Shown here: positions 3,675-10,052 of the stretch, piece by piece
Numbering within the stretch: position 1 is the stretch's first letter
How the letters are laid out: each line of letters opens with the position of its first letter
Notes under the pieces: generated by a model
Told to the model about the DNA's origin: nothing
Databases searched by the model: none
What the model saw: only the letters and a program-made list of their open reading frames with translations
Source of the DNA: Thermoleophilaceae bacterium
GTDB taxonomy: Bacteria; Actinomycetota; Thermoleophilia; Solirubrobacterales; Thermoleophilaceae
DNA length: 43,782 bases
Direction of reading: 5' to 3'
Assembly: GCA_030448005.1 (NCBI GenBank)
Contig: JAUJNT010000001.1
Span: 662,897 to 706,678, forward strand
Position numbers and translations under genes: made by a program

Positions 3675-4446
3675 CTACCCACGGCTTCGGGGCCCCCGCA
3701 AGATGCGGGGGCCCCGGCTCTCGCGTGCGGGGGCAACCGGGACACGGCGTCGACTCCTGACCTCGCGCGCGATAGTTTCGATCAGCCAGTTCGCCCCCTC
3801 GACCAGGGTGCCCGGGAAGTTGGTCCTCTCAACGGCCGGCATGCGCCGGCGGCCGCCGCCGACCATCAGGATGACCTCGTCGCGGATCTTCTTTGAGTCG
3901 GCGTCATAGTCGAGCAGGGATGCGAGCGGCGACGCCCTCGTTCTCGCGCGCCAGCCCGAGCAGGATGTGCTCGGTGCCGATGTAGTCGTGCTTTAGGGCA
4001 AATGCCTCCTCATGCGCGAGTTCGATGACCTTGCGGGCTCGTTCTGTGAAGCGCTCGAATTTTCCCTCCTGTGCGGTGGAAGCTCGCTCGCCCCCGTCTG
4101 CGCCGTACCCCGCGCCTCCGAACGCCGATGCCCGCGGGGACAGGAGAGCGTCGAAATGACCGCGTTGCGGATTTGTCTCGGGGTCGGCGTCGAAGTTGAA
4201 CAAGATGCGGGCAGCAACACCCTCGTTCTCGCGTAGGAGCCCGAGCAGAAGATGCTCGATGCCGACGTAGTCGTGCCCGAGGCTGAGCGCCTCGCGAAGC
4301 GCCATTTCGAGCACCTTCTTCGTGCGCGGGGCGAAGGGGATCCGGCCTGAGGTGACCTCCTCACCCAAGCCGACGACCCGGACCACCTCCGCGCGCGCGG
4401 GCTCGACGGTGATGTCGGTGAAGCGCTCGAACATGCCGACCATCAT
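3675..4446 (-). pseudogene. Clp N-domain repeat protein, frameshifted
   Basis: A ClpC/ClpA N-domain protein (double Clp-N repeats, no ATPase part). Repeat 1 starts at MFERFTD (ATG at 4434 or 4446) with HDYVGIEHLLLGLLRENEGVAARIL; repeat 2 with KFERFTERARKVIELAHEEA and HDYIGTEHILLGLARENEGVAARI. The frame then ends at 3904 (IPARL), but removing one C from the CCC near 3929-3931 restores LLDYDADSKKIRDEVILMV and runs on to 3675. In repeat 1, one extra A near 4173-4175 hides the expected TIRNAVISTLS, and a second compensating shift follows. So there are at least two indels. Such stand-alone domains may act as adaptors or decoys for Clp proteases; that is inference. Truncation could be real or a sequence error. 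Confidence 0.75.
3688..3716. terminator. Strong GC hairpin between convergent genes
   Basis: CGGGGCCCCCGCA pairs with TGCGGGGGCCCCG around an AGA loop (13-bp stem). It lies just after the gene ending at 3621 and at the 3' end of the minus-strand Clp-N gene, so it may serve both as terminator. No T-run follows, as is common in high-GC actinobacteria. Confidence 0.7.
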
Positions 4447-6276: not shown

Positions 6277-6307
6277 TTGAATCTCACGCAACGTGAGGTC
6301 GTAGCGT
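6277..6307 (+). promoter_or_regulatory. MerR-type promoter with 19-bp spacer and palindromic operator
   Basis: TTGAAT (6277-6282) and TAGCGT (6302-6307) are separated by exactly 19 bases, the over-long spacer typical of promoters controlled by MerR proteins. The spacer contains the perfect palindrome CTCACGCAACGTGAG (6283-6297). The start codon of the MerR-type gene at 6315 lies where transcription should begin, so the transcript is probably leaderless and self-regulated. Confidence 0.75.
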
Positions 6308-6314
6308 TCGCCTC

Positions 6315-7715
6315 GTGAGCGCAGGCGAAGAGAGGCACTGGAAGGTCGGGGAGCTCGCCAGAGCCACGGGCCTGACCGTGCGAGCGCTGCACCACTATGA
6401 CGACGTTGGGCTGCTCGTCCCGTCGGAGCGCACCTCGGGAAACCACCGCCTGTACTCAGAGCACGACGTGCGGCGTCTCTACGGTGTCATCGCCCTGCGC
6501 CGACTCGGGTTGGGCCTCGATGAGATCGCTGCGCTGCTGGACGACGACAGGGTCGGTCTCGTCGAGACCGTCCGCCGCCATCTCGCCCAGGTCGAGCGAG
6601 AGCTCGAGCACCAACATCTGCTTCGGGAGCGCTTGCGCCGGATGCTCGAGGCACTCGAGCATCGCGTCGAGCCCTCAGCGGAGGAATTCATCGACGCACT
6701 GGAGGCGATGACGATGATCGAGGTGAACGTGGAAGACGTGCTGATCCAGCTCTCGGCGGAGGAGGTAGACGAGCCGCCGCCCCGGTTGGCTCGCGAGGGA
6801 TACCGCATGGTGCACTTGAAAGAGCGCGGCGGCGAACGGGTGCTGCCGATCTGGATCGGGGCCCAAGAGGGCGATCTACTCGCTGCGCGGCTCGGCGAAT
6901 GGTCACAGAACCGCCCGATGAGCCCAGACCTAACCGCCCAGCTTCTCAAGGCCGGCGGTGCTCGCGTGGAGCGCGTCGTCATAGAGGGCATCCGCGAGCG
7001 CACCTACTACGCGACGGTCACCGTGGCCGCCGGTGGCGAGTCGCATGAGGTTGACGCGCGCCCGAGCGACGCATTGAACCTCGCGCTGAGAGTCGGCGCC
7101 CCGGTGCTGGTCGCACCCGAGGTAATCGATCAAGCCGGCGTTCCATCCGGCGTCATCGCTTCCCGACTCAATGATCCAGCGGCCGGCCCAGCGGCGCAGG
7201 GGTGGCACTCGCTCTCAGCGGATCTCGTGCGCTCGCTCTACCCCCGGGAGGCTTCGATCGGGTGGGAGCGCTACAGCCGTGAGGCGTTCCAGGTGATGAC
7301 GAACGCGCGAGAGGAGGCGCGATCCTGCGGGCACGATTACGTCGGCTCGAAACACGTCGTGGTAGGTCTTCTGCTCGAGAAGGGCAGCGTTGCGGCCAAC
7401 GTCCTCGATTCGCTCGGAGTAACGCTCGAGCGCGCCCGCGGACGGCTCATGCATCGCTCCGATGAGCAGATCGCCCCGGGGTTTCTCCCCTACGGAGAGA
7501 CGACCCAGAAGACGCTCGAGCTGGCACTTCGCGAGGAGGGCACGCGGCGACCCAACGTCGTCGGCGCAGAGCACATTCTCCTCGGGCTGGTCCGCGCGGA
7601 CGAGGGGGCGCTGCGTGACCTTGGCGTTGACGTCGAGCGCGTGCCCGAGGAGGTCTGCCGCGCGCGGCAGTCTCTAGCCCGGGAGTCGCCCTCAGGGGAA
7701 GCGCCGCACCAGTGA
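6315..7715 (+). CDS. MerR regulator fused to bifunctional-nuclease (BFN) and Clp-N domains
   Basis: A 466-residue three-part protein. Residues 8-75 are a MerR winged helix (WKVGELARATGLTVRALHHYD, then NHRLYSEHDVRRL). A charged coiled coil follows (about 85-125). Residues about 133-265 match the DUF151/bifunctional nuclease domain (LPIWIGAQEGDLLAARL, EVDARPSDALNLALRVGAPV). Residues about 310-450 are two Clp-N repeats (HDYVGSKHVVVGLLLEKGSVAANVL and VVGAEHILLGLVRADEGAL). Starts with GTG at 6315. DNA binding to its own promoter is supported by the operator just upstream. Linking a MerR sensor to a nuclease-like domain and a Clp-protease docking domain suggests control of regulator stability; this is inference. 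Confidence 0.88.
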   Translation: MSAGEERHWKVGELARATGLTVRALHHYDDVGLLVPSERTSGNHRLYSEHDVRRLYGVIALRRLGLGLDEIAALLDDDRVGLVETVRRHLAQVERELEHQHLLRERLRRMLEALEHRVEPSAEEFIDALEAMTMIEVNVEDVLIQLSAEEVDEPPPRLAREGYRMVHLKERGGERVLPIWIGAQEGDLLAARLGEWSQNRPMSPDLTAQLLKAGGARVERVVIEGIRERTYYATVTVAAGGESHEVDARPSDALNLALRVGAPVLVAPEVIDQAGVPSGVIASRLNDPAAGPAAQGWHSLSADLVRSLYPREASIGWERYSREAFQVMTNAREEARSCGHDYVGSKHVVVGLLLEKGSVAANVLDSLGVTLERARGRLMHRSDEQIAPGFLPYGETTQKTLELALREEGTRRPNVVGAEHILLGLVRADEGALRDLGVDVERVPEEVCRARQSLARESPSGEAPHQ

Positions 7716-9083: not shown

Positions 9084-10052
9084 TCATGGCAGCGTACTCG
9101 GGTCGGCGCGGCCGGTGAGCGCGGCGAGCCTGGAGGGCGAGCCGCGCGAAGCGGCGGCGGTGAGTGCGTGCAGTGCTTCAAACTCGGCGGGTGGCAAGTC
9201 ACCGAGCGATTCGTGCAGCCGGGCGTGGTTAAACCAGCCGATGTACTCGACCGTCGCGAGGTCGAGCTGCGAGCGCGTGCGCCAGACGCGGTCGGCGATC
9301 AGCTCGGTCTTGTAGCTGTCGACGAAGCTCTCGGCGAGCGCGTTGTCATAGGCGTCACCGACCGAGCCGACCGACGCCAGCACTTGATGGTCATCGAGCG
9401 TCTGGGTGTAGTCGATCGAGGTGTACCTGGCTGCCGCGATCGGAGTGGTGCACCAAGGCGACATCGGCGCCGGGCGCACGCTGTGAGAGCGCCATCACAG
9501 CGCGTCGAGCACGAGCGTGGTGGGCATGTTGGCGGCGAGCTGGAAACCGACCACCATGCGGCTGAACGCTCGAGCACGAAGGCTAAGAACACCAGCCCCT
9601 GCCAGCAGCGCAGGTAGGAGAGATCCGCCACCCACAGCCGGTTAGGCGCCTCGGCCGAGAAGTTGCGCTCGACCAAGTCCGGCCGGCGGCTGGCCTGCGG
9701 ATCCGGCTTAGTGGTGCGCCACGGCTCCCCGCGCCGCTTGGCGCCCTGGATGCCGTTGGCGGCCATCAGCCGCTGCACCCGGCCGCGGCCGACCTGCTCG
9801 TCGGCCCTGCCAAGCGCCTTCCACATCCGTCGGTAGCCGTAGGCGTAATAGTTCGCCGCCTAGACCTCTCGGATCCGGCCGAGCAGCCCGCTCGTCCACG
9901 ACCTCACGCGCGCAGCGCTCGCCGTTTGCGCGCTGGTAGTAGGCGGACGCCGACACGCGCAAGCTCCGACAGATCGGCTCGACGCCGAAGCGGCCGCGAC
10001 GCTCATTGATATAGCGGCTCACTTCGGTCGGTCTGGTCGAGCTCCTTCGCAA
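9084..10052 (-). pseudogene. IS3-family transposase OrfB, multiply frameshifted
   Basis: DDE integrase (rve) part of an IS3 transposase in at least four pieces. In order: RGRFGVEPICRSLRVSASAYY; an in-frame TAG at about 9861 before AANYYAYGYR; MWKALGRADEQVGRGRVQRL; NRLWVADLSYLRCWQGLVF (first catalytic Asp); a shift before AFSRMVVGF; a second TGA; HHSDRGSQ (second Asp); a shift, then YTSIDYTQTL and NALAESFVDSYKTEL (catalytic Glu), ending with ARLHESLGDLPPAEFEAL. With so many lesions it cannot make an active enzyme, so this is a true relic even if some indels were sequencing errors. Confidence 0.88.

What the first reader, a model, noticed from the sequence alone, without database searches (positions are those of the whole stretch)
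6277..7715. MerR + bifunctional nuclease + Clp-N triple fusion under a leaderless self-regulated promoter
One protein joins a MerR DNA-binding domain, a DUF151 nuclease-type domain and two Clp-N repeats. The 19-bp spacer with the palindrome CTCACGCAACGTGAG and the GTG at the expected transcript start support self-control. The combination suggests a regulator that is also a nuclease or a Clp substrate.
Basis: partly seen in the sequence, partly recalled or inferred. Interest (0 to 1): 0.75.

Follow-up and report, generated by a model that had tools for sequence, protein, structure and literature searches.

The report
TipA-like regulator with swapped sensor domains
A soil actinobacterium carries a self-controlled antibiotic-sensor-type gene switch whose usual drug-binding domain has been replaced by a probably non-cutting relative of a nuclease plus a copy of the ClpC protease's docking domain; this suggests an unrecognised kind of sensor for gene control.

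Summary
The 466-aa ORF at 6315-7715 has MerR, BFN (DUF151) and two Clp_N repeats, all over Pfam cut-offs. A 57%-identical full-length relative in a second family of the order shows it is no assembly chimera. The -35 / palindrome / 19-bp spacer / -10 / start-codon layout is conserved there and upstream of four TipA-type MerR genes (MerR+TipAS) in relatives. In each genome it is the only operator match with at most one mismatch. TipAS is absent from both fusion genomes. I therefore read the protein as a TipA-type autoregulator whose TipAS sensor was replaced by BFN+Clp_N. The nuclease idea is disfavoured: of TM0160's putative catalytic Thr57/His58/Asp115 only Asp remains (Ser203/Pro204/Asp252), while His is 99% invariant in about 120 other BFNs. 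Related degenerate BFNs are fused to ECF sigma factors in several actinobacteria. Clp_N resembles the drug sensor of mycobacterial ClpC2, but its cyclomarin pocket is not conserved between the two relatives. Ligand and function are untested.

The parts
6277..6282 (+). -35-like hexamer TTGAAT
   Evidence: Sequence; CTTG invariant in six aligned promoters
6283..6297 (+). Operator palindrome CTCACG-CAA-CGTGAG
   Evidence: Only match with 0-1 mismatch in the genome; same in G050 and in four TipA promoters
6283..6301 (+). 19-bp spacer, the MerR-type suboptimal length
   Evidence: Sequence; MerR promoters 19-20 bp (PMC8113463)
6302..6307 (+). -10-like hexamer TAGCGT
   Evidence: Sequence; TAGCGT or TACGGT at the same place in five of six genes
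6315..7715 (+). MerR-BFN-Clp_N fusion gene, 466 aa, GTG start 7 nt after the -10, leaderless by spacing
6342..6542 (+). MerR_1 DNA-binding domain, aa 10-76
   Evidence: Pfam E 5e-18; nearest relatives outside the fusions are TipA-type MerRs at 51-56%
6549..6659 (+). Long helix (MerR dimerisation coiled coil), aa 79-115
   Evidence: AlphaFold model
6702..6722 (+). Junction EAMTMIE, aa 130-136: shared with the end of the TipA linker helix and followed by the first BFN strand
   Evidence: Sequences
6717..7145 (+). BFN/DUF151 domain, aa 135-277 (Pfam match aa 168-277)
   Evidence: Pfam E 4e-32; TM0160 best fold match
6921..6926 (+). Ser203-Pro204 in place of putative catalytic Thr57-His58 of TM0160
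7068..7070 (+). Asp252 = Asp115 of TM0160, the one triad residue retained
7203..7247 (+). BFN tail WHSLSADLVRSLYPR, aa 297-311, shared with the G050 relative, the ECF-BFN of G226 and the lone BFN of G002
7263..7664 (+). Clp_N domain of ClpC1 type, two repeats, aa 317-450
   Evidence: PDB sequence matches E 5e-24; fold match to ClpC1 N-domain; Pfam

Best explanation
The gene encodes a dimeric one-component regulator descended from a TipA-type MerR protein. Its MerR half binds one strong operator, the palindrome inside its own 19-bp-spacer leaderless promoter (binding and autoregulation inferred from conservation). Its TipAS antibiotic-sensing domain was replaced by a catalytically degenerate BFN domain and a ClpC-type N-domain (shown by sequence). 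The most likely working is that a ligand or protein partner bound by the BFN and/or Clp_N part switches the MerR dimer, which remodels the spacer and raises the protein's own expression. The protein would then be both sensor and sponge/decoy, the logic documented for TipA and for the Clp_N autoregulator ClpC2 (inferred). The ligand is unknown; a molecule or protein that normally docks on the ClpC N-domain is the leading candidate (inferred).
For: Domains. Real, conserved fusion in two families of one order: MerR 73%, BFN 59%, tail+Clp_N 40% identity. MerR half closest to TipA-type proteins with TipAS. Same operator/19-bp/-10/start layout in fusion and TipA genes, and a single strong operator per genome. 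TipAS absent from both fusion genomes and present once, at that promoter, in the four relatives. Putative triad Thr/His lost. BFNs of the same non-canonical group fused to ECF sigma factors, with canonical BFNs a separate clade at 96/92 support. Precedents: TipA as minimal autoregulated system (PMC7762955); ClpC2 autorepressor and cyclomarin sponge (PMC10030653).
Against: No binding, expression or ligand data. Clp_N pocket residues of ClpC1 (F2, Q17, F80, E89) are W/R/Y/E here and N/R/L/E in the relative, so a cyclomarin-like ligand is not supported. Clp_N is the least conserved part and could be drifting. Only two members are known. Genes next to it are not conserved, so no target or substrate is hinted at.
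Confidence: 0.55

Rival explanations
1. Target-mimic drug sensor: the Clp_N part is a decoy of the ClpC N-domain that binds natural products aimed at ClpC (as ClpC2 binds cyclomarin A) and induces its own synthesis. This is the specific form of the best explanation.
For: ClpC2 does this with a Clp_N domain; TipA does it with TipAS; aromatic residues at both F2 and F80 positions and E89 kept in the window protein; ClpC1 F2Y and F80Y variants were crystallised with cyclomarin A (entry titles).
Against: The relative lost both aromatics (N, L); Q17 is Arg in both; the genome already has a ClpC2-like protein with an intact pocket (L046). BFN has no role in this model.
Confidence: 0.2
2. Proteostasis switch: Clp_N links the regulator to ClpCP, either docking adaptors/substrates or making the regulator a conditional ClpCP substrate, so promoter activity reports Clp load.
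For: Plant UVR-DUF151 proteins are enriched on a CLPC1 trap (PMC8889267), so BFN-Clp association recurs in another kingdom; Clp_N is the adaptor/substrate docking domain of ClpC.
Against: By the alignment, the first of the two GTEH-motif Glu (phospho-arginine site, from memory of B. subtilis ClpC) is Lys here and the second is Gln in the relative. No ATPase domain or UVR motif. No degradation data.
Confidence: 0.2
3. Regulator that is also an active nuclease.
For: BFN fold and Asp252 retained; plant BFN proteins cut DNA and RNA in vitro (PMC7249048).
Against: Putative catalytic His and Thr lost in both members, His otherwise 99% invariant. The triad itself is only a structural proposal.
Confidence: 0.08
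4. Recently assembled chimera with no selected function in its C-terminal half.
For: Very rare; Clp_N poorly conserved between the two members.
Against: Full length kept in two families at 57% with domain order, promoter and start conserved; folded model.
Confidence: 0.07

Closest known systems
TipA class of MerR regulators (TipAL, SkgA, Mta)
   Same: MerR DNA-binding half, coiled coil, EAMTMIE-type linker, operator and 19-bp leaderless self-promoter, single operator
   Different: TipAS antibiotic domain absent; BFN and Clp_N in its place
ClpC2 of mycobacteria
   Same: Clp_N domain joined to a DNA-binding dimer domain, with a palindromic operator at its own promoter
   Different: ClpC2 has its own helical N-terminal dimer domain, no MerR, no BFN; cyclomarin pocket intact there and altered here
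BFN/DUF151 proteins (TM0160, Rv1829, plant BBD)
   Same: Fold and most invariant residues including RPSD
   Different: Thr57/His58 lost; fused to a regulator; outside the canonical clade
FtsR-BFN-MerR gene cluster of Actinobacteria
   Same: BFN linked to MerR-type regulators (as neighbouring genes)
   Different: Separate genes; here one polypeptide and a TipA-type MerR (PMC6683498)
[quoted passage not shown]
   Same: Principle: sensory domain fused to a transcription-initiation protein; ECF-BFN fusions found here carry related degenerate BFNs
   Different: Known groups carry SnoaL, TPR or Cys-rich domains; nuclease domains not mentioned in the review read (PMC8999054)

Membership tests
MerR superfamily | N-terminal MerR HTH domain with dimerisation helix | tested here: met
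   Pfam MerR_1 E 5e-18; helix 79-115 in model
MerR superfamily | Palindromic operator inside a 19-20 bp spacer | tested here: met
TipA class | C-terminal TipAS effector domain | tested here: not met
   No TipAS in the protein or the genome
TipA class | Operator/promoter layout shared with TipA genes, single autoregulatory site | tested here: met
TipA class | Antibiotic-induced activation | not testable with these tools
   Needs bench work
BFN/DUF151 | BFN profile and fold | tested here: met
   E 4e-32; TM0160 fold match
BFN/DUF151 nuclease | Putative triad Thr57/His58/Asp115 of TM0160 | tested here: not met
   Ser203/Pro204/Asp252
BFN/DUF151 nuclease | DNase/RNase activity | not testable with these tools
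   Needs assay
ClpC2 | Clp_N domain without AAA modules | tested here: met
   no AAA domain in Pfam scan
ClpC2 | ClpC2-type N-terminal dimer domain | tested here: not met
   MerR domain instead
ClpC2 | Cyclomarin contact residues F2, F80, E89 (ClpC1 numbering) | tested here: inconclusive
   W, Y, E here; N, L, E in the relative
ClpC2 | Binds and controls its own promoter | not testable with these tools
   Operator conserved, binding not measured

The most novel reading that the evidence does not exclude
A subfamily of degenerate BFN domains is a general signal-input module of transcription-initiation proteins (MerR regulators and ECF sigma factors) in Actinomycetota. Its fusion to a ClpC N-domain would tie this signal to Clp proteolysis, echoing the plant DUF151-CLPC1 association: an autoregulated sensor of Clp status that no described family covers.
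Probability: 0.25. Interest if true: 0.78.

Novelty: new variant of a known kind. Interest (0 to 1): 0.62.

Why it matters
The role of the BFN/DUF151 domain is poorly understood: its nuclease activity rests on in vitro assays and on a proposed active site. Natural fusions to a MerR regulator and, separately, to ECF sigma factors, with the proposed active site lost, make a testable case that BFN can be a sensor rather than an enzyme. The added Clp_N domain joins two known autoregulated sensor-sponge designs (TipA and ClpC2) in one protein and gives a bacterial counterpart to the plant DUF151-CLPC1 association. The single self-promoter makes a reporter screen for the ligand straightforward.

Tried and rejected
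First genome-contig scan with the single protein found nothing. The second, with an alignment, gave one full-length relative and otherwise ordinary BFNs. Searches for BFN-UVR fusions among 78 collected BFN loci found none by a simple motif. BFNs in long open frames (G380, G268, G043, G531, G521, G260) proved canonical BFNs with spurious upstream read-through. Synteny between fusion and TipA loci was tested and is absent, so they are not the same chromosomal locus. The neighbouring Clp_N gene in the window (3904-4446) has no counterpart near the G050 gene. Plasmid collection: only partial MerR or Clp_N matches, none covering 80%. The structure alignment misplaced part of the ClpC rows, so I use the model only for domain folds, not for domain packing. 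Literature searches for MerR-Clp_N or ECF-BFN fusions in the open-access library found no report; that library lacks most subscription papers.

Full report
Observation. The ORF at 6315-7715 starts with GTG and encodes 466 aa. Pfam finds MerR_1 (aa 10-76), BFN (168-277) and two Clp_N stretches, all over cut-off; in the whole-genome scan the second Clp_N repeat is weak but still over cut-off. PDB sequence searches agree: TipA N-terminal domain (2vz4), TM0160 (1vjl/1sj5) and ClpC1 N-domain (3wdc and others) match the three parts. An AlphaFold model has mean pLDDT 85, and Foldseek returns TM0160 and ClpC1 N-domain as best matches.

The fusion is real and old. A full-length relative with the same domain order lies in G050:C81, the Solirubrobacteraceae MAG AVDCRST_MAG53, a different family of the same order. 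Overall identity is 56-57%; by part it is MerR 73%, BFN 59%, tail plus Clp_N 40%. Two independent assemblies exclude a chimeric contig. It is also rare: 2 of roughly 790 distinct actinobacterial genomes sampled (the searches are profile-limited, so this is a lower bound).

The promoter. TTGAAT (6277-6282), CTCACG-CAA-CGTGAG (6283-6297), 19-bp spacer, TAGCGT (6302-6307), 7 nt, GTG. G050 has TTGAAG-CTGACGTTGCGTGAGGGCG-TACGGT-9 nt-ATG. Four genomes carry MerR proteins whose MerR half is the next closest to ours (51-56%). All four have a TipAS domain (Pfam for two; genome scan for all four). Their genes carry the same operator at the same place. Searching TTGANNCTSACGNNNCGTSAG with up to two mismatches in seven genomes gave exactly one hit with 0-1 mismatch in each of the six genomes that hold a fusion or TipA gene, always in that gene's own promoter, and none in the seventh, G002. 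In five of the six genes the start codon falls 7-9 nt after the -10, which fits a leaderless transcript; G058 lacks a clear -10. A 19-20 bp spacer is the MerR signature (PMC8113463). Self-control is therefore inferred with good support; binding was not measured.

The domain swap. TipAS is absent from G000 and G050 and present once in each of G001, G030, G058 and G100, so fusion and TipA are mutually exclusive in this small set. The MerR linker ends in EAMTMIE, as in TipA-type proteins, and runs directly into the first BFN strand. The simplest reading is a TipA regulator whose TipAS was exchanged for BFN+Clp_N, keeping DNA-binding half and promoter. The loci are not syntenic, so the event cannot be pinned to one locus.

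The BFN part is probably not a nuclease. PMC7249048 reports that the TM0160 structure suggested Asp115, His58 and Thr57 as a putative catalytic triad. Aligning TM0160 with our protein, after allowing for an apparent 12-residue offset (tag) in the chain numbering, puts Ser203, Pro204 and Asp252 at those places; the relative has Gly, Pro, Asp. Among about 120 other BFNs collected here the His is 99% invariant, the single exception being Pro. The triad is a structural proposal, so this argues against catalysis without proving its absence.

An unexpected link to sigma factors. Profile searches found ECF sigma factors (Sigma70 r2 and r4_2) fused to BFN domains in G226 and G431 (Pfam) and, by sequence similarity, in G417, G444 and a contig-edge case in G400. 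Their motif reads RPLTSDL, RPMAYxF or RPGTYRF instead of RPxTHDL; G400 keeps the His. In a 50-sequence tree canonical BFNs form one clade (96/92), and all regulator-linked BFNs, with the lone BFN of G002, fall outside it; our protein groups with the G226 ECF-BFN (98/79). Several of these branches are long, so the exact order is unsure. The G226 gene is interrupted by a short tandem duplication at the BFN end, perhaps an assembly error. In the conserved actinobacterial ftsR cluster a BFN gene sits between two MerR genes (PMC6683498). I found no report of ECF-BFN or MerR-BFN-Clp_N proteins in the papers searched.

The Clp_N part. In mycobacteria the lone Clp_N protein ClpC2 binds its own promoter, binds cyclomarin A, and is induced by it as a sponge (PMC10030653). 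That is the closest precedent for a Clp_N sensor in an autoregulator. But the cyclomarin contacts F2, F80 and E89 are W, Y, E here and N, L, E in the relative, and Q17 is Arg in both, whereas this genome's own ClpC and ClpC2-like protein keep F, F, E and Q. The GTEH-motif glutamates are also each lost in one of the two proteins. So the pocket has diverged and no known ligand is supported. In plants UVR-DUF151 proteins are enriched on a CLPC1 trap (PMC8889267), so BFN and Clp meet again there.

Conclusion. What is shown: the triple fusion, its conservation, the TipA-type promoter with a single strong site, absence of TipAS, loss of the putative BFN triad, and related BFNs on ECF sigma factors. 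What is inferred: autoregulation, sensing, sponge behaviour, ligand identity. It works like a TipA/ClpC2-type autoregulated sensor; it is a MerR-family member but, lacking TipAS, not a TipA protein, and it is not a ClpC2 protein.

Noticed in passing
L094:5287-6552 (G226), L095:4622-5722 (G431), L208:4071-5174 (G417), L209:3835-5274 (G444), L211:96-686 (G400, contig edge): ECF sigma factors with a C-terminal BFN/DUF151 domain that mostly lacks the putative catalytic His, in at least two classes of Actinomycetota; no report found.
   Followed up: partly
L045:5871-6716 (+) and L044:5660-6718 (-) (G050): Clp_N repeats followed by an RsiG-like coiled coil. Pfam RsiG E 2e-14 for L045; L044 has the same tail by sequence. 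This is a possible c-di-GMP/anti-sigma link of Clp_N.
   Followed up: partly
window 3904-4446 (-): Small Clp_N-only protein whose first repeat is largely deleted, followed by a linker and a second Clp_N start, about 2 kb upstream of the fusion gene.
   Followed up: partly
L046:5639-6358 (-), G000:C2: ClpC2-like protein (HTH-like N-terminus plus Clp_N) that keeps F2/Q17/F80/E89 of the cyclomarin pocket, in the same genome.
   Followed up: partly
L038:6141-6710 (-), G002 (same genus): Stand-alone second BFN with the regulator-type substitutions (His to Pro, ALNLA) and the WQPLVPDLIKEL tail, not next to an obvious regulator.
   Followed up: partly
L094:6190-6290: Short tandem duplication near the BFN end that breaks the frame of the G226 ECF-BFN gene; it may be an assembly error.
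   Followed up: no
window 9084-9826 (-): IS3-type transposase remnants in overlapping frames, 1.4 kb downstream of the fusion gene (recognised by eye, not by a family search).
   Followed up: no
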